A DNA stretch of 64,000 bases. It comes from Agromyces salentinus (GTDB lineage: Bacteria; Actinomycetota; Actinomycetes; Actinomycetales; Microbacteriaceae). Location: positions 1-64,000 of the forward strand of contig NZ_WBIR01000005.1 of the NCBI RefSeq assembly GCF_009749395.1, in the 5' to 3' direction. Below the pieces are notes generated by a model. It ran no database searches, was not told the DNA's origin, and saw nothing but the letters and a program-made list of their open reading frames with translations. Below, piece after piece: positions 2,817 to 14,859 of the stretch; the first letter of the stretch is position 1, and each line of letters starts with the position of its first letter. The position numbers and the translations under genes are program-made.

Positions 2817-2887
2817 GCCCCCAACGCTAGCCCTGCCCGGTCCGCGACGATATGCACGCCCCCGTCCGGAACTGGCATGCTGATCCC

Positions 2888-3253
2888 GTGGGCATTCTGA
2901 CCTGGAACTTCACGCGGACCATCGAGCTGGAAGACCGCGCGCTCGCGCACGTCCGAAGCGTCGTGTTCACGAAGCTGCGGCGCGGCGAGTCGTTCGCGTA
3001 CTCGTGGGAGAACACCGTCGAACGCGGCAGCGGCCGCAACTCGGTCTGGTTCGGTCCCGACATCCCCGTGACGTTCGAGTTCTTCGGGGAGCGCGACATC
3101 CCGCTGAACCCCCGCTGGGTTCGCGCGCTCATGACGGCGGCGAACTCGCCAGGCGGCCTCGTGCTCGTCCCTGAGCCGGATCAGGAGCCATCCGATGCGC
3201 CGAGGGCGCCGGACGGACCCCAGGCTGCCGCACGCGGCCGTCAGGCCCCTTGA
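2888..3253 (+). CDS. DUF7882 family small protein, copy 1
   Basis: 121 residues from a GTG. It shares a pattern with the genes at 3241 and 4892: a short N-terminal strand, then D-R-x-LAH-x-x-x-V, KLRR-(G/K)-E-S/Y-F, a weakly conserved middle with W-(I/F)-x-P-x-I-P, and a C-terminal W-x-x-A-L-x-x-x-ANS-x-G-G/L-x-L-V-P-E-P. I know this as a Microbacteriaceae-restricted family, formerly mis-annotated as ATP-dependent DNA ligase; it has no ligase motif and no known function. This copy has an extended, variable Ala/Pro/Arg-rich tail. CATGCT lies 6 nt before the GTG, a possible leaderless start. Its end overlaps the end of the convergent copy 2 by 13 bp. Confidence 0.8.
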   Translation: MGILTWNFTRTIELEDRALAHVRSVVFTKLRRGESFAYSWENTVERGSGRNSVWFGPDIPVTFEFFGERDIPLNPRWVRALMTAANSPGGLVLVPEPDQEPSDAPRAPDGPQAAARGRQAP

Positions 3254-3567
3254 GCGGGTTGGCCGAGAGGATCGGCGGGTTCGGGCACCAGGATGAGGCC
3301 CGAAGCGGAGTTGGCCGCCTTGGTCAGCGCCTGCACCCACGCGCCGTTGAGGCGCGGCGGCCGCCCGCCGAAGTACTCGAAGGCGAGCGGAATGGACGGC
3401 GAGATCCAGACCGAGGTGCGCCCGAATCCGCTCGAGGAGGATTCGGTCCAGGTGAACGCGAAGTACTCGCCGCGGCGGAGCTTCGCCCAGATCACCGACT
3501 GCAGGTGTGCCAGGACGCGATCGTCGAACGAGACGACCAGCTTGGAATCGTAGGTGAGGGTGCCCAT
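3241..3567 (-). CDS. DUF7882 family small protein, copy 2
   Basis: 108 residues starting MGTLTYDSK, the typical N-terminus of this family. It contains DDRVLAH, AKLRRGEYFAF, a SVWISPSIP block and ANSASGLILVPEP near the end. It is convergent with copy 1, with the last 13 bp overlapping. A second ATG directly precedes the chosen one; the second is preferred because family members start M-G-x-L. No membrane segment or signal peptide. Function unknown. Confidence 0.82.
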   Translation of the reverse strand: MGTLTYDSKLVVSFDDRVLAHLQSVIWAKLRRGEYFAFTWTESSSSGFGRTSVWISPSIPLAFEYFGGRPPRLNGAWVQALTKAANSASGLILVPEPADPLGQPAQGA

Positions 3568-3697
3568 CATGGGCAGGATATCGGTCTCGGCCCCGTCGCG
3601 CAGCGACCCCACGAAACCGTCGATGGCGGAGTATAACCCCTCGGGGCCGATCGAGCGGTCTCTTGCCAGAGCAGGTATGGCGGGAGAGGCTGGTCGC

Positions 3698-4477
3698 GTG
3701 GCAACGAGTGAATGGACGCCCTCAGCCGCGGAGCTTTCCGCGGAACTTCGTCGAGCGCTCGCTGAGGAGGAACTGATCGCGTTCTTCCAGCCTCAGGTCG
3801 ACCTGCGCTCGGGCCGCGTCGTCGCGGTCGAGGCACTCTGTCGTTGGAATCATCCGCAGTACGGGGTCCTGATGCCCGACCGGTTCATCCAGGAGGCTGA
3901 GCGGTCGGGGTACATCGCGCGGCTCGACCGGCTGATGCTCGAGGAGGCCGCGAGGCGGGCAGTCGAGTGGCACGGTCGGGGCATCGAGGTCTCCTTCGCG
4001 GTGAACGTCTCGCCCACGGAACTGCACCCGGAGTTCGCCGACTCGACCCTGGAGCACCTCCAGGAGCTCCACCTTCCGCCTCGTGCGGTGACGGTCGAGA
4101 TCACCGAGTCACCCGCACTGCAGGAGTCGTGCGAGGAGTACCGCACCCTCCAGACTCTGCTCGAGGGCGGGGTGGGCGTCGCGGTCGACGACTTCGGCGC
4201 AGGGCACACGACGCTCGAGAGCCTCAGGCGGCTGCCCTTGAGCGAGATCAAGATCGACCGTTCGCTGATGCTCGACCAGCGCCCGGAGGCCGACTCTCTC
4301 GTCGCCGAGTGCATCGGCATCGCGCATGAGCGCGCCGCGATCGTGGTCGCCGAAGGCGTCGAGACCGACGAGCACCTCGCCCGCGCCGTGCGCTGGGGAT
4401 GCGATCGCGCCCAGGGCTTCTACTTCGCACCCGCCCTGTCGGCGGAGGAGATCGAACCGCTGCTCGTCGTCGCCTGA
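3698..4477 (+). CDS. EAL-domain c-di-GMP phosphodiesterase
   Basis: 259 residues, essentially a stand-alone EAL domain. The catalytic set is complete: EAL at 45-47, N103 in NVSP, E134 in EITES, D164-D165 in DDFGAG, K185 in IKID, E219 and E222 in EGVET and Q239. The protein is therefore predicted to hydrolyse cyclic di-GMP to pGpG. There is no sensor or membrane domain, so it is cytoplasmic. The GTG at 3698 has GGGAGAGG 8 nt upstream; an ATG at 3677 is the alternative but has no good ribosome site. It converges on the bacteriophytochrome-cyclase at 5241, with opposite activity. Confidence 0.9.
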   Translation: MATSEWTPSAAELSAELRRALAEEELIAFFQPQVDLRSGRVVAVEALCRWNHPQYGVLMPDRFIQEAERSGYIARLDRLMLEEAARRAVEWHGRGIEVSFAVNVSPTELHPEFADSTLEHLQELHLPPRAVTVEITESPALQESCEEYRTLQTLLEGGVGVAVDDFGAGHTTLESLRRLPLSEIKIDRSLMLDQRPEADSLVAECIGIAHERAAIVVAEGVETDEHLARAVRWGCDRAQGFYFAPALSAEEIEPLLVVA

Positions 4478-4592
4478 CGGCGAGGCGTCACCCACGACGT
4501 CGCCTGACGTGCGGCGTCACCGACGGCTGGGCGCGTGCCGCCCCGTCGGTCTCCCAGGCCTCGAGAAACAGCCCGGACGGGCCCGTGCGGCC

Positions 4593-4859
4593 CTAGAGGC
4601 CGAATTCGTCGTCGACGCCCGACCCGGAACGGTCGTCGGCACGGTCGGCCGTCTCGCCGCCCACGTCGATCTGCGACCAGGTCACGGGCATGCCGGGCGA
4701 GAAGAGGATGTCGATGCCGGGTCCCCCGCGCAGCGGTGGGATGTTCACGTACCCACCACCCGCCTTGATCGCCTCGAGGATGTTTCCCTTGAGGTCGGTC
4801 ACGGGGTCGGGCAGGAAGTAGTCGCGTCCGTCAACGGTCAGGCGGTGCACAATGCTCAC
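4593..4859 (-). CDS. hypothetical protein, 88 residues
   Basis: A small protein starting from a GTG, with an acidic Asp/Glu-rich tail and no signal peptide or membrane segment. I do not recognise the family. The start is supported by a TAGCCT box at 4866-4871 on the reverse strand, 6 nt upstream. It is divergent from DUF7882 copy 3, with only 32 bp between the two start codons, so the pair is probably co-regulated. The N-terminal half (V-D-G-R-D-Y-F-L-P-D) looks like a small beta-rich domain; no function can be assigned. Confidence 0.65.
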   Translation of the reverse strand: MSIVHRLTVDGRDYFLPDPVTDLKGNILEAIKAGGGYVNIPPLRGGPGIDILFSPGMPVTWSQIDVGGETADRADDRSGSGVDDEFGL

Positions 4860-4891
4860 AGGATCAGGCTACTCCCAGTAGGATCACGTCG
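4860..4891. promoter_or_regulatory. divergent leaderless promoter pair
   Basis: This 32-bp gap holds two opposed -10 boxes: TAGCCT on the reverse strand (4866-4871), 6 nt before the GTG at 4859, and TAGGAT on the forward strand (4879-4884), 7 nt before the ATG at 4892. The -35 region of each would lie inside the other gene. Confidence 0.5.
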
Positions 4892-5188
4892 ATGGGAAAC
4901 CTGCACTACGGCTCGCCTCCGGCGTCCTTCGACATGCCCGACCGCACGCTCGCGCACGTGGAATTCGTCGTGCTCGCGAAACTCCGCCGCAAGGAGAGCT
5001 TCGCGCTCTCGATCGAGAGCCCGACCGGCGGGCGTCAGCAGATCTGGATCAACGGCGCCGCCACGCTGCGATTCGAGTTCGACACGAACGTGACCGACAT
5101 CAATCGGGCATGGCTCGAAGTGCTCATCGACTCGGCGAACAGCGCCGGCGGCATGCGCCTGACCCCCGAGCCCGAGCGCGCCGGCTGA
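4892..5188 (+). CDS. DUF7882 family small protein, copy 3
   Basis: 98 residues, the most compact of the three copies. It shows DRTLAHVEFVV, AKLRRKESFAL, QIWINGAATL in place of the W-x-P-x-I-P block, and DSANSAGGMRLTPEP at the end. It is followed by a 9-bp terminator-like hairpin at 5187-5209 and is convergent with the bacteriophytochrome gene. Start fixed by the M-G-N-L motif and the TAGGAT box 7 nt upstream. Function unknown. Confidence 0.82.
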   Translation: MGNLHYGSPPASFDMPDRTLAHVEFVVLAKLRRKESFALSIESPTGGRQQIWINGAATLRFEFDTNVTDINRAWLEVLIDSANSAGGMRLTPEPERAG

Positions 5189-5209
5189 CGCCGGGCGCCG
5201 CCCGGCGTC
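5187..5209. terminator. hairpin between convergent genes
   Basis: A perfect 9-bp stem (gacgccggg with cccggcgtc) and a 5-nt loop begins at the stop codon of the DUF7882 gene and faces the end of the convergent cyclase gene. There is no T-tract, as is usual in high-GC actinobacteria. Confidence 0.5.
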
Positions 5210-5240
5210 ACGGCAGCCGACCGGGGTCGGCCGCCGCTCC

Positions 5241-7184
5241 TCAGAGCGAGACGCGGTTGCGCCCCGCCCGCTTCGCCCGGTACATCGCGGCGTCCGCGGC
5301 TTCGAGCAGGCCCGTCCGAGGCGTCCCGGGCTCGGCCACGACCACACCGCACGACGCCGTGACCGTGAGGGACACCCGTCCCCTGACGATGGGCGCCGCG
5401 ATCGCCTCGACCATCCGGTCTGCGATGGCCTGCACGTCCTCGCCGATGACGCCGTCGAGGAGCACGACGAACTCGTCGCCGCCGAGGCGCACGACCTCGT
5501 CCTGCTCACGAGAGTTCGCAGCGAGCCGCTCGGCGACCTCGAGGATGACCGCATCGCCGACATCGTGGCCGTAGCGGTCGTTGATGGACTTGAACTCGTC
5601 GAGGTCGACGAAGAGCACGGCCTTGCCGTCTGCGCCCACGGGCCCTCGCGTCTCCAGGCGCTCGACGAGGTATCGCCGGTTGTAGAGGCCGGTCAGGGCG
5701 TCGCGCATCGCGAGCTCAGCGAGTTGCGCCTCGGCGCGCCGCTGCAGGGCGACCTGGAGTTCGCTCCCGAGGTCGGCCGCCTCGTCGACGACCGTGCCCC
5801 AGGGCTCCGAGCGGCCGACGATGGTGCGCTGCCACGCCGAGAAGGACGTGCGCGGCGACAACTCGTCGGGACGGTCGACACCGCCGGGGTCGCCGAGCCA
5901 CGAGATCTCGCGAAGGACCTCGCCGCGGAAGAACACGAGCACGTCCCCGTCGCCGTCGAGCGACACGACGAGCATTCCCGCGACATCGGGCAGCAGGCTC
6001 GCGACATCCGGCCGGTCGTTGGCGAGCGCCTCGGAGACGAAGGACCCGCCCTCGAGCAGTTCGAGGGCCCTGGTGACGTCGGCGATGGGCGGGACGTCAC
6101 CGCCCACCCGGACGATCCCGCCGATGCGCACGAAGACGCCGTCTGCGGGAACCAGGTCGAGGACGGTCTGCGAGCCGCCGAGCAGGGCCTTCCGGATGTC
6201 GTCCGAGGCGTACAGCGGGGCGAGCAGGGCCGCCCGACGCTCGCGGACCTCGACCATGTGGCGCAGGCGCGTGATCTCGCGCATCGACGCGAACTGCATC
6301 GCGAGCTGTCCCGCGAGCACCTCGAGCGAGCGCCGCAGCAGCACCGGGAGCCGGCGCTCGGTTCGGTGGGCGCAGGTGATCATGCCCACGAGACGGCCGT
6401 CCTCGACGAGCGAGAGCGAGAACGTCGACGCCTGCCCCATGTTGCGCATGTACTCCAGGTGGTGGGGCGAGACGCTGCGCAACTCGGCGTTCGAGAGGTC
6501 GATGCTTCGGGCGTCGCCGGCCACCGACAGGAGCGGGATGCCCGGGTCGGTGGTGCTGGCGATCGCCCGTCCGAGCTTCGCCAGGTACAGGGCGCGCGCC
6601 TGCGCCGGGATGTCGGATGCCGGGAAGTGCAGCCCGATGTACGGCTCGAGCTCGTCGACGTGGTCGTCGGCGACCACCTCGCCATGGCCGTCGTCGTGGA
6701 AGTGGTAGATCATCACCCGGTCGAAGCCGGTGATGCGTCGGATCGCCGCCGCAGCCTCCGCGCGCAACTCCTCGATCGAGGTGAGTCCGGAGAGGCGGGT
6801 GATCGCCTCCACGACGGCGGTGCGCGCGTATTCGTTGCCCGGCGGCACGGGCTCGAGCTCGACCAGGGTCAGGCCGTCGAGCCGGTGGACGATCGCATCG
6901 GTCGGCACCCCCTGCCACTCGACCCGCACGGGGTCGATCGCGCGGCCGGTGCGCATCGCGAACTCGAGGTCGGCGTCATCGATCTCCACGACCGGCCGTC
7001 CGAGCCATTCGCGGGCGTTCTCGCTCGCGACGACGATCACCTGGGTGGCGTCGTCGATGCCGAGCAGGGTGCCATGACCTTGGATCGTGCCTGGCGTGCG
7101 AATGGGCTCCTTCGCGCATTCTGCAAGCCGCCGCAGTTCGTCCGGATCGATGGCGAGTTCCGCCGGGTCCACAGGCGACTCCAT
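5241..7184 (-). CDS. bacteriophytochrome-diguanylate cyclase (PAS-GAF-PHY-GGDEF)
   Basis: 647 residues. PAS (about 10-110) begins with C23 in a CAKEPIRTPGTIQGHG block, matching the N-terminal biliverdin-attachment cysteine of bacteriophytochromes. GAF (about 125-305) has PASDIP (D191), SPHHLEYMRNMG (H242, Y245) and CAH (H273), the usual chromophore contacts. The PHY domain has the tongue motif PRTSF at 444-448. The C-terminal GGDEF domain has GGDEF at 568-572 and an RxxD inhibitory site at 559-562. The protein should therefore be a red/far-red-sensing, product-inhibited synthase of cyclic di-GMP. No heme oxygenase is in the window. Start at ATG 7184 is the first that fits the PAS_2 N-terminus; an open frame continues 33 codons upstream. 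Confidence 0.92.
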   Translation of the reverse strand: MESPVDPAELAIDPDELRRLAECAKEPIRTPGTIQGHGTLLGIDDATQVIVVASENAREWLGRPVVEIDDADLEFAMRTGRAIDPVRVEWQGVPTDAIVHRLDGLTLVELEPVPPGNEYARTAVVEAITRLSGLTSIEELRAEAAAAIRRITGFDRVMIYHFHDDGHGEVVADDHVDELEPYIGLHFPASDIPAQARALYLAKLGRAIASTTDPGIPLLSVAGDARSIDLSNAELRSVSPHHLEYMRNMGQASTFSLSLVEDGRLVGMITCAHRTERRLPVLLRRSLEVLAGQLAMQFASMREITRLRHMVEVRERRAALLAPLYASDDIRKALLGGSQTVLDLVPADGVFVRIGGIVRVGGDVPPIADVTRALELLEGGSFVSEALANDRPDVASLLPDVAGMLVVSLDGDGDVLVFFRGEVLREISWLGDPGGVDRPDELSPRTSFSAWQRTIVGRSEPWGTVVDEAADLGSELQVALQRRAEAQLAELAMRDALTGLYNRRYLVERLETRGPVGADGKAVLFVDLDEFKSINDRYGHDVGDAVILEVAERLAANSREQDEVVRLGGDEFVVLLDGVIGEDVQAIADRMVEAIAAPIVRGRVSLTVTASCGVVVAEPGTPRTGLLEAADAAMYRAKRAGRNRVSL

Positions 7185-7334
7185 CCGCCGGCCATAAGAA
7201 GGGGAGCCGGTCGCGCCAACTGTATTCAGGGATACTGCCCTCAGGCAAGCGCCCAGACCCCCTTGACAAGATCCGATTGCCATGCAATGTCCAGCCGCGG
7301 CGACTCCCGCGGATGGGGCATCCGGAGACGCGGA

Positions 7335-7368
7335 AGCCCCGGTCGGGATCTGGGGATCCGCCGGGGCT
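7335..7368 (-). terminator. terminator of the original tRNA-Tyr gene
   Basis: The inverted repeat agccccgg / ccggggct (8 bp, 18-nt loop) lies just downstream, on the reverse strand, of the displaced tRNA 3' end. It was probably the terminator of the tRNA gene before the element separated them. Confidence 0.55.
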
Positions 7369-7371
7369 CAG

Positions 7372-7429
7372 GGTGGCGAGTGAGGGATTCGAACCCCCGA
7401 AGTCGATGACAGCTGATTTACAGTCAGAT
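7372..7429 (-). repeat. attL: displaced 3' part of tRNA-Tyr, 58-bp direct repeat
   Basis: These 58 bases are identical to 14776-14833, which form the 3' two-thirds (anticodon arm to acceptor stem) of an intact tRNA-Tyr gene. Here the 5' part is absent, so it is a tRNA fragment. The base corresponding to the last A of CCA is C here, so the ancestral chromosomal gene probably did not encode CCA. Confidence 0.9.
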
Positions 7430-7541
7430 ATTGCGTGGGCACACGTGTCGATCAATGTCCCTTCGTGCCCGCGTGTTTGCTGGGATTCGCACCGCCCGGT
7501 ATCTGATTGTGTACCCTCAGAGAAACTCGATTCGACTTCGT

Positions 7542-7561
7542 GGATTGCCCACGGATTGCCC
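7542..7561. repeat. left-arm direct repeats (candidate integrase arm sites)
   Basis: Two copies of ggattgccc, 11 bp apart. The same word occurs at the right end as gattgccc (14671-14678), ggattgccc (14681-14689) and inverted gggcaatcc (14701-14709). Their position at both ends fits arm-type sites for the recombinase. Confidence 0.5.
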
Positions 7562-7580
7562 GAAAGGTCCTAGCGCCCGC

Positions 7581-8783
7581 ATGTCAACACAGACCCGCCG
7601 AAAGTACGACGCCGCACGTGAAAGCTGGGGGGCAGTGCGTAAGCGGGCGAGTGGGCGCTACCAAGCGAGTTACGTCGGGCCCGATGGCACGCGTTATAAC
7701 GCTCCGCACACGTTCGACACCCTCGAAGATGCCCGCGGATGGCTTGCGGGCCAGCGCGTCGATATCCAGCGGAGCATGTGGAAGAGTCCCGCGGCTCTGG
7801 CAGCCGAGGCAGAAGCAGAGGCGAAGCGAGCCGACTCGGAGCGGTTCGGCGCGTACGCCTCGACCTGGGTTGAGCAACGAGCCAACGGAAAGGGACAGCC
7901 GTTGAGGCCGAAAACGCGGACCGGGTATGAGCGCCAGCTCGAGCGAGGACTCGCCCTCTTCGCGAACGATCGGCTAACCCACATCACTCCCGCGCGGGTT
8001 CGTGCATGGCACTCAGAGCGTGCGAAGTCTGCGAAGACGGCCGCTGGCGCGGAGGCCCGACTGCTGCGCGCGATCCTGAACACCGCCGTCGTAGACGGCA
8101 TCATCGAACGCAACCCAGTTCCGGCAAACCTCACGCGCAGCCTGACTGGAAAGTCGCACCGGCCGCCGACGATTGACGAGCTTGGCGTCCTTCTCGACAC
8201 GATGCCCGACAATCTTCGGCTGGCCGTCCTGCTGGCCGCGTACGGCGGCCTCCGACTCGGGGAATGGCGGGCCCTGCGCCGTTCGGATGTCACGGTCGTG
8301 GACGGCCGAGTCGCAGTCAGGGTTGAGCGCGCAGCCCAGTATGTGAATGGTCACGGCTGGCACGTCGGCCCACCGAAGTCCGATGAGGGAGTGCGACTGG
8401 TCACGCTGCCGTCTGCCTTGTCTGAAGAAGTAGAGGCACATCTGTCCGAGCATGTCGGGCCGTTCGCTGAGTCGCTGATCTTCGCCCCGACAGGTTCGAC
8501 TCCGTTTCTCACGGATAGCTCATGGAACCGGGCGTGGGATGTGGCACGAGATGCCGCGAGCATCCGGGGACAGGTACGAGAGCACGACCTCCGTGCGTTC
8601 GCTGCAACCATGCACGCACAGTCAGGTGCGACCCTCAGGGAGACAATGAAACTGCTCGGACACTCCACCACGATCGCTGCGATGGCGTACCAGCATGCCG
8701 CGGCCGACCGAATGGTGGAGCTCGCAGATCGGATGCCGATGCCGTCAGCCGCATCGAAGCGGGTCGCTCGCATAGGCGTCTGA
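7581..8783 (+). CDS. int: tyrosine recombinase (integrase)
   Basis: 400 residues from the ATG at 7581. The N-terminal part has the arm-binding fold of phage integrases, followed by a SAM-like core-binding domain and a catalytic domain with R in GGLRLGEW, the HDLRAF box, and LGHSTTIAAMAYQH carrying the final His and the nucleophile Tyr. All catalytic residues are visible, so it should be active. It is the gene next to attL and presumably drives integration into and excision from tRNA-Tyr. An upstream in-frame start at 7431 would run from the attachment repeat itself and is less likely; GAAAGG lies 13 nt before the chosen ATG. Confidence 0.93.
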   Translation: MSTQTRRKYDAARESWGAVRKRASGRYQASYVGPDGTRYNAPHTFDTLEDARGWLAGQRVDIQRSMWKSPAALAAEAEAEAKRADSERFGAYASTWVEQRANGKGQPLRPKTRTGYERQLERGLALFANDRLTHITPARVRAWHSERAKSAKTAAGAEARLLRAILNTAVVDGIIERNPVPANLTRSLTGKSHRPPTIDELGVLLDTMPDNLRLAVLLAAYGGLRLGEWRALRRSDVTVVDGRVAVRVERAAQYVNGHGWHVGPPKSDEGVRLVTLPSALSEEVEAHLSEHVGPFAESLIFAPTGSTPFLTDSSWNRAWDVARDAASIRGQVREHDLRAFAATMHAQSGATLRETMKLLGHSTTIAAMAYQHAAADRMVELADRMPMPSAASKRVARIGV

Positions 8784-9157: not shown

Positions 9158-9352
9158 ATGACAGCGACCGTCACTGAGTGGATGACCATTGCGGAGGTGG
9201 CACACGTTCATGGCGTACATGCCAAGACCATTCGCCGGATGATCGCGCGAGGCGACCTGGAGGCAGTGCGTCTCGGCCCGCGCCTCATCCGCGTCAATCG
9301 AGCGAGTCTCGACGCCTCTGGTGGGCCATATCGGGCCCTCACGGGGCGCTGA
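9158..9352 (+). CDS. xis: excisionase-like helix-turn-helix protein
   Basis: 64 residues, essentially one winged helix-turn-helix of the MerR/excisionase type: WMTIAEVAHVHGVHAKTIRRMIARGDLEAVRLG followed by an IRV strand. GGGAGG lies 8 nt before the ATG. Proteins of this size and position beside an integrase usually act as directionality factors or as repressors of the element; which one applies cannot be told. The next gene begins inside its 3' end. Confidence 0.8.
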   Translation: MTATVTEWMTIAEVAHVHGVHAKTIRRMIARGDLEAVRLGPRLIRVNRASLDASGGPYRALTGR

Positions 9353-10265
9353 GCTGTCCGCCTCACGGGAACCGAGACGCGCCTCCAGGCTCGTCGTCGA
9401 CGGCCCGCGGCCCGCCGTAGAAGCGGTGGCAGCGCTTCCGCGATCGTACCGGCTCAATCCAGCGGACCGGCTCGTCCTCTTCGCTCTCGCGTGCGATTCG
9501 TTCGATGGCATCGAGAGCGCGCCCGGCGCTGACGCACTCGCCGCATGGGCAGGCATGTTCCCGAGTTCGGTCTATGAGATTCTGAGCCGCCTCAGCGCCG
9601 CGACAGCAGATCGTCCTGCACTCGTCGAACGCTCCGAGACGCGGCGAGGTAGGCATCGGACGGTATACCGCCTGCTCGTCGATCAGTCCGGTATCGCCGG
9701 AGAGTTCGAAGAGCCGGCAGCCAGCGTGGTCGCGCAAGTGCGCGGCGCGAAGGCCGACGAACGCTCCGCCCATCCGACCGGCGAACCATCTGGGGAACGC
9801 TCCGGCGTGGCCGGAGAACTCCCTTCCCTTTCCCTTCCCTCTATCCCCCCTACCCCCCTGACTGAACCGATCGCCAGGGTGCTAACTCCGCAAAGCGAGG
9901 AGGGTTCGAGCCTCGAACAGGCCAGAGCCACCGACTACGACGCTGATGCACGAGATCGACTCAAAGACATCCCCCTCCACCTTTGGGCATGGGCGGAATC
10001 GCGTCGACCCATCGCCCACGAGCATGAAGGATTCGCGCGGCGGAAGCTCGCTCGAATGGGCCTCCCGCTCCCGCTGAACGAACTGCTCGAGCACGCGTAT
10101 CGGCTTGGGGCAGGCAATCCCTGGCCGGGCGCACAGATCATCGCCGCCCGCGCGGACAGGCGTCCACTCACTGGGGCGAGCGATCCGACCGCCGTACTTC
10201 GTTCACGACTGGCGCAGCCAGTTGAACGGAACGAACGCCCGGCCAGCATGGCCGGGCGTCAGTGA
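9321..10265 (+). CDS. putative replication or regulatory protein with helix-turn-helix domain
   Basis: 314 residues from a GTG at 9321, overlapping the xis-like gene by 32 bp; the exact start is uncertain because no ribosome site is visible. Residues about 45-120 form a helix-turn-helix region (RLNPADRLVLFALACDSF ... SSVYEILSRL) like those in element-encoded replication initiators. The middle (about 150-195) is a low-complexity linker ending in a Pro/Ser/Leu stretch encoded by a nearly pure pyrimidine tract. The C-terminal part is helical and ends over a hairpin at 10235-10259. Function is inferred only from fold and position. Confidence 0.6.
   Translation: MGHIGPSRGAELSASREPRRASRLVVDGPRPAVEAVAALPRSYRLNPADRLVLFALACDSFDGIESAPGADALAAWAGMFPSSVYEILSRLSAATADRPALVERSETRRGRHRTVYRLLVDQSGIAGEFEEPAASVVAQVRGAKADERSAHPTGEPSGERSGVAGELPSLSLPSIPPTPLTEPIARVLTPQSEEGSSLEQARATDYDADARDRLKDIPLHLWAWAESRRPIAHEHEGFARRKLARMGLPLPLNELLEHAYRLGAGNPWPGAQIIAARADRRPLTGASDPTAVLRSRLAQPVERNERPASMAGRQ
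9819..9858 (+). repeat. homopyrimidine tract inside coding sequence
   Basis: About 40 bases on the forward strand are almost only C and T, built from cccttccctt-like units and runs of C. It encodes the linker of the HTH protein. It could form triplex DNA, or simply reflect a Pro/Ser/Leu-rich linker. Confidence 0.6.
10235..10259 (+). terminator. hairpin over the end of the rep-like gene
   Basis: A perfect 11-bp stem (acgcccggcca / tggccgggcgt) with a 3-nt loop covers the last codons of the HTH gene, just before its TGA at 10263. It may be a terminator or attenuator limiting transcription into the following gene. Confidence 0.5.
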
Positions 10266-11125: not shown

Positions 11126-11467
11126 ATGAGTCTCGACATTGAGCCCACTCTCCGGAGAATTGTCCGTGAAGAGATCGCCTCGGTAGTCGACGAGTTGGTC
11201 CGTGCGTCCGCTCCCACGGCTTCACCAAGCGAGCCAACGCCCAGCGATCACCCGGCAGCCTGGCTCACCGTTCATCAAGCTGCCGAGCTGGCACAAGTCT
11301 CAACTCGGACAGTCATGCGCGCGACGAGGGCGGGTGAGCTCCACGGGGTTCAGCGGAAGCCCGGCTCCATGTGGCGCGTCCAAAAGCATTGCGCCGACGC
11401 CTGGTTAGCGAACGAGCCGTGCGATCACCGATCCGCGAAGGTCACCCAGTTTCCACGGCAGAGGTGA
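11126..11467 (+). CDS. helix-turn-helix DNA-binding protein (excisionase family)
   Basis: 113 residues. The first 45 are an acidic and Ser/Pro-rich leader with a helix; the rest is a MerR/excisionase-type HTH (WLTVHQAAELAQVSTRTVMRATRAG, then GVQRKPGSMWRVQ). The ATG has TAGCTT 6 nt upstream (11114-11119), suggesting a leaderless transcript from its own promoter. It is a second such protein in the element and may be a regulator of the cargo genes or the true directionality factor. Confidence 0.7.
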   Translation: MSLDIEPTLRRIVREEIASVVDELVRASAPTASPSEPTPSDHPAAWLTVHQAAELAQVSTRTVMRATRAGELHGVQRKPGSMWRVQKHCADAWLANEPCDHRSAKVTQFPRQR

Positions 11468-12012: not shown

Positions 12013-12561
12013 ATGGAATGGTGGGCGGAGGCATGGAACTCAGTCGCCCAGTTCTTTGGATATGACGAATGGGTATGGGGTAGCGCTGCTGACTGGTTCG
12101 CAGCGATCGGCACGATTGCGGCGGTCGGCGTCACCATCGCGGTGGTCTTCCGAGAGGCGAACCTTCGGAAACGGTCTCAAACAGATCAGGTGACGGTCCG
12201 GCTTGAGTATGCCGTGACCTGGTACTACGTCGTCGTGTCGAACCGAAGCAGCCATCCTTTCCCGTACGTGGAGGTGTATTGGCGAAAAAAGGGGGACCGC
12301 GGTCGGCCCAAATCGGCTGCGACCTATCCAGACACGAACGGCGATGACATCGACGCGGGGGAAACGATTCTGCTCGACGCGAGCATGCCACAGGGCATCG
12401 AATACACCGGCACGGTAATTGCCGTCATGTGCGACGCCCAAGGGCGCATGTGGCACCGCGTCGTAACGGGCGATAAGTACGTCTCTGCACGCCGCTCAGC
12501 GCAGTTCACGCGCGGAATCAAGTTCCCGTTCATCGAGAGGCGCTGGTTTCGCACTCCATAA
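12013..12561 (+). CDS. hypothetical membrane protein in element
   Basis: 182 residues. A Trp-rich N-terminus (MEWWAEAWNSVAQFFGYDEW) is followed by one membrane helix at about 28-46 and a basic stretch, so most of the protein is probably cytoplasmic. The rest looks beta-rich. The start is supported by TAGTCT 7 nt upstream. No family recognised. It lies two intergenic spaces before the DprA-like gene and may or may not belong with it. Confidence 0.65.
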   Translation: MEWWAEAWNSVAQFFGYDEWVWGSAADWFAAIGTIAAVGVTIAVVFREANLRKRSQTDQVTVRLEYAVTWYYVVVSNRSSHPFPYVEVYWRKKGDRGRPKSAATYPDTNGDDIDAGETILLDASMPQGIEYTGTVIAVMCDAQGRMWHRVVTGDKYVSARRSAQFTRGIKFPFIERRWFRTP

Positions 12562-12836: not shown

Positions 12837-13742
12837 ATGTCCGACAGTGCCGAGCTCGAGCAGATCGCAGCACTCGTCGCACTGCGATTCCGAGCAGAGA
12901 ACGCTCTGGTTCCGTCTGTCCTTCGACGTGAGTTTGAGGATGGCCGGCTGCCACTGGAAATTTTGGAGCGCGCCGATCCCAGCGCACTCGTCGCTGAAGA
13001 TCGCACGACCGAGCTCGAATGGGCGATGGCCCAGATACGACAATGGTCAGAACAGAACATCGAAGTTCTGACTCCCTTCAGCGACCAGTACCCTGCACAG
13101 CTTCGGACCGTGTACGACTACCCCGTGATCCTGTTCGCTCGAGGTAGCGTTCGGCATGACACTCGGTCGGCAGCAATAGTCGGAAGCCGAGAAGTGAGTG
13201 ATTGGGGACTCCGTTTCGCCGCAAACCTTGGGGCTGCCCTCGCGGAAGACGGGGTGACGGTCGTGTCAGGGCTTGCCCGGGGCGTGGACGGCGCTGCCCA
13301 TACTGCCGCGCTGCAGGCCGGAGGGCGCACAGTTGCAGTGCTCGGCAATGGCCTCAACTACGTGTACCCGCGGGAGCATCGATCTCTACAGGGCGAAATC
13401 GAGCGAACTGGACTCGTGCTCTCGCAGTTCCTTCCTGATGAACGCCCTACTCGGCGGTCCTTCCCGGCGAGGAACATCACGATGAGTGCCTACAGCAGCA
13501 TCACAGTAATCGCGGAAGCCGCGGAGAAGTCGGGCACGAGGATTCAGGCGGATGCGGCCGTAAAGCACGCCCGCCCCCTGGTAATAACAACCCAGGTAGC
13601 TGCAGAGACTTCGTGGGGTCACCACTACGCTTCCGGACAATTCGATGTGACCGTTGTCGCCACTGCCGCTGAAGGTCGTCTGGCGATTCAACGCATCCTC
13701 AGTCGCCTACACAATCATGCCCCGATGGCGTTCCCCGCGTGA
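12837..13742 (+). CDS. DprA-like Rossmann (SLOG) protein, element cargo
   Basis: 301 residues. After an N-terminal helical domain (about 1-95) comes a DprA/Smf Rossmann fold: AIVGSREVSDWG (113-124), VVSGLARGVDGAAH (142-155), GGRTVAVLGNGLNYVYPREH (162-181), the FPARN block (209-213) and SGTRIQADAAVK (232-243). There is no C-terminal winged-helix domain. DprA normally binds single-stranded DNA and loads RecA during transformation; copies in mobile elements with a partner gene belong to the wider SLOG group linked to nucleotide-based conflict systems. TAGACT lies 6 nt before the ATG. The stop overlaps the start of the phosphoribosyltransferase gene, so the two are translationally coupled. Confidence 0.85.
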   Translation: MSDSAELEQIAALVALRFRAENALVPSVLRREFEDGRLPLEILERADPSALVAEDRTTELEWAMAQIRQWSEQNIEVLTPFSDQYPAQLRTVYDYPVILFARGSVRHDTRSAAIVGSREVSDWGLRFAANLGAALAEDGVTVVSGLARGVDGAAHTAALQAGGRTVAVLGNGLNYVYPREHRSLQGEIERTGLVLSQFLPDERPTRRSFPARNITMSAYSSITVIAEAAEKSGTRIQADAAVKHARPLVITTQVAAETSWGHHYASGQFDVTVVATAAEGRLAIQRILSRLHNHAPMAFPA

Positions 13743-14518
13743 CGGCCGCCGGAGTGCCGCCTGCACTGCAGCCGGTGGACGATCTTGCCACCCGAACACT
13801 GACGCCGCTCCTCGTTACGCCCGTTCGATTGCCGCTCATCACATGTGCTGTCTGTACAGAACCCACAGGGGGATCCGAGTACTGCGCGGCATGCCGCGCC
13901 GCACGCAACAGTTGGCCGACCAGCCTTGCGGACTGGGTGGTACCGCTAACGTATGCGTCGGACACTGCGACGCCGCAGATCCGGAACGCTCTACGGCAAT
14001 ACAAGGACGGGTGGGATGAACCAACCCGTGGAGCTGCGTTCTCGCCCCTGACATATCTTTTGTGGCAGTTCCTAACCCGACATAGCCACTGCCTCGAAGC
14101 TGCGGCCGGCGGTTCCATAGATGGCTACGTCATCGTTCCGTCTGGGCGCGCCACACCTCGTCAGGGCGGTCATCCAATCGAGGGCTTTGCCCCTTACTTC
14201 CCTTGGCCCCGAATGAATATTCAGCGCGTCACTGACGCGCCCTCGCGCTCGATCGCTCCGCTTTCTCTGTACGTGCCGGACGACGTCAGCGGCAAGCGAA
14301 TTCTGATCTTCGATGACACGTGGACAACCGGAGCGTCAGCCCAGGGTGTTAGCGCTGCGCTAAAGCGCGAGGGTGCGGCCAGCACGGTGATCCTCGTGCT
14401 TGGTAGATGGGTCAATTCCGGTTGGACCCCGACGCAAGCCTTTTTCTCGCAAAGGCCGCCTCGGACCTGGAGCCCTGCCACATGTCCGGTCACGGGCGGT
14501 ATCTGTCCTGGCGCATAA
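13739..14518 (+). CDS. ComF-like phosphoribosyltransferase, partner of DprA-like protein
   Basis: 259 residues from a GTG that overlaps the preceding TGA by 4 bp. CxxC at 36-39 and 49-52 form a zinc finger as in ComF. IRNALRQYKDG (81-91) and the PRPP-binding loop ILIFDDTWTTGAS (188-200), with its paired Asp residues, mark a type I phosphoribosyltransferase fold. The C-terminus carries CPVTGGICP (249-257), a second small Cys motif. In competent bacteria DprA and ComF both act on incoming single-stranded DNA, but here both are element cargo. Enzymatic activity on a base or nucleotide is possible; the true substrate is unknown. It is the last gene before the right end of the element. Confidence 0.82.
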   Translation: MTAAGVPPALQPVDDLATRTLTPLLVTPVRLPLITCAVCTEPTGGSEYCAACRAARNSWPTSLADWVVPLTYASDTATPQIRNALRQYKDGWDEPTRGAAFSPLTYLLWQFLTRHSHCLEAAAGGSIDGYVIVPSGRATPRQGGHPIEGFAPYFPWPRMNIQRVTDAPSRSIAPLSLYVPDDVSGKRILIFDDTWTTGASAQGVSAALKREGAASTVILVLGRWVNSGWTPTQAFFSQRPPRTWSPATCPVTGGICPGA

Positions 14519-14774: not shown

Positions 14775-14859
14775 TGGTGGCGAGTGAGGGATTCGAACCC
14801 CCGAAGTCGATGACAGCTGATTTACAGTCAGATCCCTTTGGCCGCTTGGGTAACTCGCC
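14775..14859 (-). tRNA. tRNA-Tyr (anticodon GTA)
   Basis: 85 nt including an encoded CCA at 14775-14777. The acceptor stem GGCGAGT pairs with ACTCGCC, the anticodon GTA is at 14823-14825 in loop CTGTAAA, a long variable arm is present and the T arm contains GGTTCGAAT. Its 3' 58 nt are supplied by the mobile element and duplicated at 7372-7429; the 5' part is original chromosome. The gene looks functional. Confidence 0.95.
14776..14833 (-). repeat. attR: 58-bp direct repeat inside tRNA-Tyr
   Basis: Identical to 7372-7429. It contains the tRNA from the anticodon arm to the CC of the 3' end. The crossover lies somewhere inside these 58 bp. Confidence 0.9.

What the first reader, a model, noticed from the sequence alone, without database searches (positions are those of the whole stretch)
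12837..14518. Coupled DprA-like plus ComF-like phosphoribosyltransferase cassette as mobile-element cargo
Seen: a DprA-type Rossmann protein without winged helix and a phosphoribosyltransferase with a ComF zinc finger and a second C-terminal Cys motif overlap by 4 bp and are the last genes before attR. Known: DprA and ComF belong to natural transformation, and SLOG-fold proteins recur in nucleotide-based conflict systems. Inference: since both sit as cargo on an element with no competence genes, they may form a defence or inter-element exclusion system that senses single-stranded DNA or modifies a nucleotide.
Basis: partly seen in the sequence, partly recalled or inferred. Interest (0 to 1): 0.72.

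Follow-up and report, generated by a model that had tools for sequence, protein, structure and literature searches.

The report
DprA plus phosphoribosyltransferase defence-like pair
A small mobile element parked in a bacterial tRNA gene carries a two-gene module, a DNA-uptake-like protein plus a sugar-phosphate-transferring enzyme, that looks like a relative of the known ShosTA toxin-antitoxin phage defence but uses its own lineage of enzyme.

Summary
At 12837-14518 a 301-aa DprA (SLOG) protein without winged helix and a 259-aa phosphoribosyltransferase (PRTase) with a four-Cys zinc ribbon overlap by 4 bp, at the end of a 7.4-kb element bounded by a perfect 58-bp repeat in tRNA-Tyr; two relatives show the empty site. 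The host has its own dprA and a comF-like gene elsewhere. The defence idea is sound but not new: DprA+PRTase pairs are the published ShosTA/PsyrTA/RqlHI toxin-antitoxin kind, and one from a P2-like phage blocks T7 and lambda. Added here: (1) the pair recurs on actinobacterial plasmids (10 of 10 PRTase-bearing records) and in two Gordonia phages; (2) 12 of 17 genome loci with this PRTase have the DprA next door, against 0 of 41 ComF-like loci; (3) PADLOC's ShosT and ShosA scores here are no better than those of three housekeeping ComFs and close to those of three DprAs, so the label ShosTA is not earned by sequence; (4) the PRTase forms its own clade, with a DDTW loop, a conserved second His/Cys set and no HAD domain. 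Best reading: a HAD-less ShosTA-like toxin-antitoxin/abortive-infection cargo. New variant of a known kind; activity untested.

The parts
7372..7429 (.). attL: 58-nt perfect copy of the 3' part of tRNA-Tyr
   Evidence: the repeat finder
7431..8783 (+). tyrosine integrase
   Evidence: PF00589 E 2.2e-12; phrog_1 integrase E 9.6e-52; start codon uncertain
9158..9352 (+). AlpA/excisionase-like HTH protein
   Evidence: TIGR01764 E 8.1e-12
9321..10265 (+). possible replication-initiation (O-like) protein
   Evidence: weak phrog_8540 E 0.013; no match at E 1e-8 in 397 other family genomes, none at E 1e-3 in the phage collection
10299..10940 (+). 213-aa protein of unknown family
   Evidence: no significant match in Pfam, PADLOC, NCBIfam or PHROGs (one Pfam hit of E 0.15)
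11126..11467 (+). HTH_17/excisionase-type DNA-binding protein
   Evidence: PF12728 E 2.5e-9, TIGR01764 E 5.4e-7
12013..12561 (+). 182-aa protein, likely N-terminal transmembrane helix by eye, unknown family
   Evidence: sequence read; no family
12837..13742 (+). DprA-like (SLOG) protein, candidate antitoxin/sensor (ShosA-like)
13739..13742 (+). 4-bp overlap of the two genes (translational coupling likely)
   Evidence: sequence
13739..14518 (+). phosphoribosyltransferase, candidate toxin/effector (ShosT-like, ComF-like architecture, no HAD domain)
13844..13894 (+). N-terminal zinc ribbon C36-C39-C49-C52
   Evidence: all four Cys in 36 of 41 family members; also in 9 of 9 ComFs
14081..14092 (+). 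H115-x2-C118, proposed half of a second metal site
   Evidence: H115 in 41 of 41, C118 in 39 of 41; in 0 of 9 ComFs
14306..14335 (+). PRPP-binding loop IFDDTWTTGA
   Evidence: D192/D193 in 40 of 41, W195 in 39 of 41
14483..14506 (+). C-terminal CPVTGGIC, proposed other half of the second metal site
   Evidence: C249 in 39 of 41, a further Cys behind it in 32 of 41
14776..14833 (.). attR: 58-nt repeat, 3' end of the intact tRNA
14775..14859 (-). tRNA-Tyr (gta), integration site
   Evidence: ARAGORN

Best explanation
A ShosTA-like toxin-antitoxin module carried as defensive cargo by a 7.4-kb tRNA-Tyr-integrated element. The PRTase is the toxic effector: it keeps the PRPP-binding acidic pair and PRTase fold and, once released, would use PRPP to disturb the nucleotide pool or nucleic acid and stop growth. 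The DprA-like protein, translated first and coupled to the toxin, would hold the PRTase in check and bind DNA; when an incoming phage disturbs DNA or host transcription the restraint is lost and the infected cell stops before the phage is made. Shown here: gene pair, overlap, folds (predicted), motifs, mobility, recurrence of the pair, separation from host dprA/comF. Inferred from the published relatives: toxicity, restraint, trigger, phage protection.
For: The PRTase occurs with the DprA in 10 of 10 plasmid records (eight regions fetched; the other two by coordinates) and in Gordonia phages Vasanti and Bosnia. Genome loci with the PRTase (A1 score 70 bits or more): 7 of 9 in the family sample and 6 of 9 in the phylum sample, both counting the window, so 12 of 17 distinct; ComF-like loci (46 bits or less) 0 of 41. 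Host dprA and comF-like gene lie elsewhere. In the DprA tree the window protein sits in a starred mobile clade (96/95) apart from the clade of the host's order (100/98). 40 of 41 family members hit PADLOC's ShosT at E 1e-3 or better. Published: a P2-hotspot DprA+PRTase protects against T7 and lambda (PMC9122126, passage); RqlI binds RqlH through its PRTase domain and a PRPP-pocket Asp mutation largely removes toxicity (PMC4670107, passages); ShosT is summarised as PRTase and pyrophosphatase, ShosA as DNA-binding antitoxin, T7 Gp0.7 as trigger (review PMC12593503, passage).
Against: No experiment on this lineage. PADLOC's ShosT model gives the window PRTase 27.2 bits, but three housekeeping ComFs 25.2, 31.0 and 33.9; ShosA gives 221 bits against 198, 200 and 216 for three housekeeping DprAs. 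The PRTase profile is nearer to ComF (hhalign E 1.9e-22, 186 columns) than to seven short PRTases from other DprA pairs (E 1.1e-9, 41 columns). The HAD domain of the Pf and (weakly) P2 ShosT is absent. The PRTase domain of RqlH alone was not toxic. Five of 17 PRTase loci have no DprA found beside them. Plasmids L046 and L047 have the DprA with only a PRTase remnant.
Confidence: 0.6

Rival explanations
1. Plain addiction module: the same toxin-antitoxin pair keeps the element in the cell and has no antiviral role.
For: Overlapping genes at the edge of a small integrated element; DprA relatives act as antitoxins.
Against: The pair also sits in phages Vasanti and Bosnia, close to their integrase genes, which have their own means of staying in the cell; a related pair was measured to block phages.
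Confidence: 0.17
2. DNA-handling aid: DprA protects or delivers incoming single strands and the ComF-like PRTase helps, so the pair promotes transformation or the element's own transfer or replication.
For: Both folds are those of competence proteins; ComF is the structural tie of the PRTase and its nearer profile.
Against: No other competence family among the eight element proteins searched; the host has its own dprA and comF-like gene; the PRTase is sporadic (9 of 398 family genomes) and its pair is found on plasmids and phages.
Confidence: 0.1
3. Nucleotide-signal system: the SLOG domain binds or makes a nucleotide messenger that switches the PRTase.
For: SLOG fold shared with ThsA and LOG proteins; distant relatives of this PRTase stand beside SIR2-STALD genes in L085 and L086.
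Confidence: 0.08

Closest known systems
ShosTA (DprA-like antitoxin + PRTase toxin; E. coli APEC O1 ShosA 8zva, ShosT 8zvb-d; the P2-hotspot DprA/PRTase system of PMC9122126)
   Same: Two adjacent genes, DprA without winged helix plus PRTase; mobile-element cargo; Foldseek first hits are ShosA and ShosT.
   Different: Window PRTase has no HAD domain, has a ComF-type zinc ribbon and a second His/Cys set, lies in its own clade, and is not picked out by PADLOC's ShosT model above three ComFs.
PsyrTA / RqlHI
   Same: DprA-like antitoxin controlling a toxic PRTase domain.
   Different: There the PRTase is fused to a RecQ-like helicase; no helicase here.
ComF (competence) and housekeeping DprA
   Different: Paired in one operon on mobile DNA; separate clades; loop DDTW and H115/C118 set absent from 9 of 9 ComFs compared.
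DprA-HAD + PRTase pairs of Microbispora/Actinomadura (L034-L036)
   Same: Same PRTase family beside a DprA.
   Different: Gene order reversed and a HAD hydrolase domain fused to the DprA.

Membership tests
ShosTA | DprA/SLOG gene adjacent to and co-directional with a PRTase gene | tested here: met
   4-bp overlap
ShosTA | PRTase matches the ShosT profile better than ComF does | tested here: not met
   27.2 bits against 25.2-33.9 for three ComFs; four short ShosTs score 61.2-164.6, the one of Escherichia phage 10W (P2-like) 973 on PDLC03012
ShosTA | DprA matches the ShosA profile better than housekeeping DprA does | tested here: inconclusive
   221 bits against 198-216 for three housekeeping DprAs and 323-340 for L044, L120
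ShosTA | Fold of ShosA and ShosT | tested here: inconclusive
ShosTA | One mobile DprA clade with ShosA, apart from housekeeping DprA | tested here: inconclusive
   Joined with four proteobacterial ShosA-type rows at 97/51, not starred; all mobile rows incl. P2/Pf as one side not rejected, p-AU 0.403
ShosTA | PRTase toxic alone and neutralised by DprA; phage protection | not testable with these tools
   needs expression and plaque assays
PsyrTA/RqlHI | RecQ-like helicase fused to the PRTase | tested here: not met
   Pfam scan of eight element proteins shows no helicase
ComF | NCBIfam comF model (TIGR00201) | tested here: inconclusive
   22.3 bits, cut-off 233.55; but the host's own comF-like gene reaches only 55.9 bits and only 2 of 14 control genomes pass the cut-off
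ComF | Groups with chromosomal comF of the same family | tested here: inconclusive
   Window in a starred clade of 13 (99/100); 9 ComFs in their own starred clade (100/98); deep nodes weak
housekeeping DprA | Is the host's dprA, grouping with its order | tested here: not met
   Host dprA at G000:C40 groups with relatives (100/98); the window copy lies elsewhere

The most novel reading that the evidence does not exclude
The actinobacterial pair is a separate, ComF-derived lineage of DprA-guarded toxin: a PRTase with two metal sites (zinc ribbon plus HxxC/CPVTGGxC) and no HAD domain, recruited to defence independently of ShosT, which would show that a bare PRTase is sufficient as a phage-triggered toxin and that competence proteins were turned into immunity more than once.
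Probability: 0.3. Interest if true: 0.55.

Novelty: new variant of a known kind. Interest (0 to 1): 0.38.

Why it matters
ShosTA-type systems turn two competence folds into a toxin-antitoxin defence, and how the PRTase poisons the cell is still thinly understood. A compact version without HAD domain, with conserved metal-binding residues and a clear PRPP loop, is a good minimal test of which activity is toxic. It also shows that PADLOC's models score this lineage much as they score ordinary ComF and DprA, so a call by name alone is unsafe either way.

Tried and rejected
Filing it as ShosTA on PADLOC names alone: rejected after the housekeeping controls (three ComFs, three DprAs, the DprAs being records of other phyla from the plasmid and phage collections, not the host's). 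Host dprA/comF reading: rejected. I first took a weak match at G000:C36 (E 0.02) for the host comF; one search puts the comF-like gene at G000:C33. PsyrTA: no helicase. Testing 'cargo' by finding the same backbone with other cargo failed: the replication-like gene has no match in 397 other family genomes or the phage collection. Direct repeats around other copies: L084 has a 71-nt pair beside tRNA-Leu, L083 none. Cut between PRTase and ComF: the A3 E-values of the phylum search show no gap (9.4e-23, then 1.9e-22), so I cut on the A1 score, 70.7 against 46.1 bits and 76.0 against 46.3. Of 42 loci below the cut (21 of 25 such places, 21 of 62, i.e. those returned as loci; L110, L115 and L116 cut short by contig ends) one, L059, shows the W loop and Cys tail of this PRTase: it is a short frame, probably a remnant, has no DprA within 1.5 kb and was taken out of the ComF count, leaving 41. 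Above the cut, the loop [DE]D-[TSA]-[WF] is in 14 of 17 distinct loci; L056 and L057 have DDVY and no Cys tail, and no loop was found in L095. DprA was sought with one sequence at E 1e-3 in frames of 100 aa or more, so distant DprAs could be missed. PRTase tree: six of 41 A3 rows left out (P0013, P0140, P0153-P0156). DprA tree: nine of 82 prepared rows left out, all housekeeping, and only 20 of the 120 listed P proteins used. Second metal site: only conservation was tested; no coordinates were available. That the pair of Escherichia phage 10W (L041) is the system tested in PMC9122126 was not checked. Literature: Kimelman 2012 (PMC3317161), Sberro 2013 (PMC3644417) and Pu 2025 (PMC11961720) are not held and are cited only through other papers. 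Paper searches.

Full report

THE ELEMENT. A perfect 58-nt direct repeat (7372-7429, 14776-14833) bounds 7.4 kb; the right copy is the 3' end of an intact tRNA-Tyr. An integrase starts beside the left repeat, followed by an AlpA-like protein, a protein weakly like phage O initiators, an unknown, a second HTH protein, a small likely membrane protein and the pair. No capsid, tail or relaxase family appeared among those eight proteins; the AlpA-like protein has a weak match to a terminase-small-subunit family (E 0.022), shared HTH most likely. In relatives G015 and G008 the flanks meet directly at this tRNA: the left flank matches from 7317 or 7323 to 7429 and the right flank from 14776/14777. 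Window 2845-7317 (G015) or 2829-7323 (G008) is also missing there, so that stretch is itself strain-specific. The element is GC-poor (63.2% against 70.9 and 71.9%), and the pair has lower third-position GC (63.5, 64.9%) than the six other element genes (68.8-74.6%), as expected of late-acquired cargo.

NOT THE HOST'S COMPETENCE GENES. The host has another dprA (G000:C40, 36% identical) and a comF-like gene at G000:C33 (TIGR00201 E 1.1e-14, positions 1-178 of 190). Of 24 genomes (this one and 23 relatives), 23 had at least one dprA and five, this one included, had two. In a tree of 73 DprA domains the window copy lies in a starred clade of mobile actinobacterial DprAs (36 rows, 96/95), apart from the dprA of the host and its order (starred, 100/98). 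Four proteobacterial ShosA-type rows join the mobile side at 97/51, which is not starred; a single mobile side including the long-branched P2 and Pf ShosA is not rejected (p-AU 0.403).

THE PAIR RECURS. tblastn with the PRTase finds 10 plasmid records, all actinobacterial; all 10 have a DprA match beside it, one across the record's origin (eight regions fetched, two judged by coordinates). Among phages it finds Gordonia phage Vasanti (deposited twice), and the DprA search adds Gordonia phage Bosnia; both carry the pair. In whole genomes I separated this PRTase from ComF by the score of the A1 profile (70 bits or more against 46 or less). Family sample, 398 genomes: 33 with a match, 9 of them this PRTase, 7 of 9 with DprA within 1.5 kb. 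Phylum sample, 396 genomes: 71 with a match, 9 this PRTase, 6 of 9 with DprA. The window counts in both, so 12 of 17 distinct loci are paired. Of 42 loci below the cut none has a DprA; 41 have an ordinary loop without the aromatic residue, and one (L059) is probably a remnant of this PRTase, so the ComF control is 0 of 41. Of the five unpaired, three (L089, L090, L094) have no DprA within about 5 kb, and two (L085, L086, the same places as L056, L057) have instead a convergent SIR2-STALD gene followed by an AEP-like gene; those two also differ in loop and tail. On the DprA side specificity is low: 256 plasmid records match, two of those I opened being ordinary dprA. Two plasmids (L046, L047) have the DprA with only a PRTase remnant.

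IS IT SHOSTA? It looks like one in anatomy; membership by sequence fails a control. PADLOC names the pair ShosA (221.1 bits) and ShosT (27.2 bits), and 40 of 41 members of the PRTase family hit ShosT at E 1e-3 or better, best 7.5e-10. But three housekeeping DprAs score 198-216 and three chromosomal ComFs 25-34 on the same models, whereas pairs that these models fit score 323-340 (ShosA, L044 and L120) and 61-165 (four short ShosTs), and the P2-like phage 10W pair 765 and 973 on its own models. The Gordonia phage DprA of the same lineage scores 213. Profile-profile comparison puts this PRTase family nearer to ComF (E 1.9e-22, 186 columns, zinc ribbon included; one of the ten A6 rows is L059) than to seven short PRTases from other DprA pairs (E 1.1e-9, 41 columns). 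In a PRTase tree of 54 rows the window is in a starred clade of 13 (99/100), nine ComFs are in another (100/98) and four ShosTs in a third (98/95); L041, L125 and L059 are long branches placed elsewhere, and deep nodes are weak. So I call it ShosTA-like, a lineage of its own.

DISTINCTIVE FEATURES. Of 41 family members: the four zinc-ribbon Cys in 36; H115 in 41, C118 in 39, C249 in 39, a further Cys behind C249 in 32; W195 of the DDTW loop in 39; acidic D192/D193 in 40. Nine ComFs have the zinc ribbon but neither H115/C118 nor the W loop nor a Cys tail; the tenth row of that set, L059, has W loop and Cys tail and is not a typical ComF. In the wider genome loci the loop residue is W or F (14 of 17). 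I propose a second metal site (H115, C118, C249 and a C-terminal Cys); distances could not be measured. HAD domains travel with this kind of system in three ways: fused to the PRTase in the Pf phage (HAD_2 E 3.9e-23) and, below Pfam's cut-off, in the P2-like phage 10W and a Streptomyces plasmid; fused to the DprA in Microbispora and Actinomadura, gene order reversed; or not detected, as here and in an Enterobacter plasmid pair.

HOW IT PROBABLY WORKS. Published relatives give the model. A P2-hotspot DprA+PRTase protects E. [quoted passage not shown] RqlH's PRTase domain is genotoxic without RqlI, RqlI does not co-precipitate an RqlH lacking that domain, and a PRPP-pocket Asp mutation largely removes toxicity, although the isolated domain was not toxic (PMC4670107, passages). 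A review summarises Pu et al. 2025: ShosT is PRTase and pyrophosphatase, disturbs purine metabolism and ends in cell death, ShosA binds DNA, T7 Gp0.7 is a trigger (PMC12593503, passage; the paper itself is not held). Another paper lists ShosTA among systems tied to phage single-stranded-DNA-binding protein (PMC10732053, passages). By analogy the window's DprA restrains the PRTase until phage infection. That step, the toxicity and the trigger are inference. Surveys already report ShosTA calls on actinobacterial plasmids and prophages (PMC10482375 and PMC10023795, passages), so the ecological setting is known too.

VERDICT.

Noticed in passing
L085:8631-11632 and L086:7944-10816: In two genera of the same family a distant relative of this PRTase (loop DDVY, no Cys tail) has no DprA but overlaps tail-to-tail with a SIR2_2 + STALD (SLOG) gene, which is followed by an AEP-like (PF24387) gene: a possible different PRTase-SLOG conflict module.
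   Followed up: partly
L034, L035, L036 (about 5800-8280): PRTase followed by a DprA-HAD fusion, reversed gene order, in Microbispora and Actinomadura.
   Followed up: partly
L045:1309-4445: Streptomyces plasmid with three genes in a row: HAD-PRTase (weak matches), DprA, ComF-like PRTase.
   Followed up: partly
L084:5836-12117: Another copy of the pair lies 3' of a tRNA-Leu between 71-nt direct repeats 6.1 kb apart, followed by a protein-kinase gene.
   Followed up: no
L082:9654-11426: A SIR2_2 gene lies next to a copy of the pair.
   Followed up: no
L059 (G271:C1:660812-661174): Short frame with this PRTase's W loop (DDSW) and a Cys tail, no DprA within 1.5 kb: probably a remnant.
   Followed up: partly
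window 2845-7317: The stretch left of the element, with a GGDEF/phytochrome-type gene, an EAL-type gene and three short paralogues of about 100-130 aa (all read by eye from the ORF translations), is absent from the same place in G015 and G008 (about 70-75 bp there).
   Followed up: no
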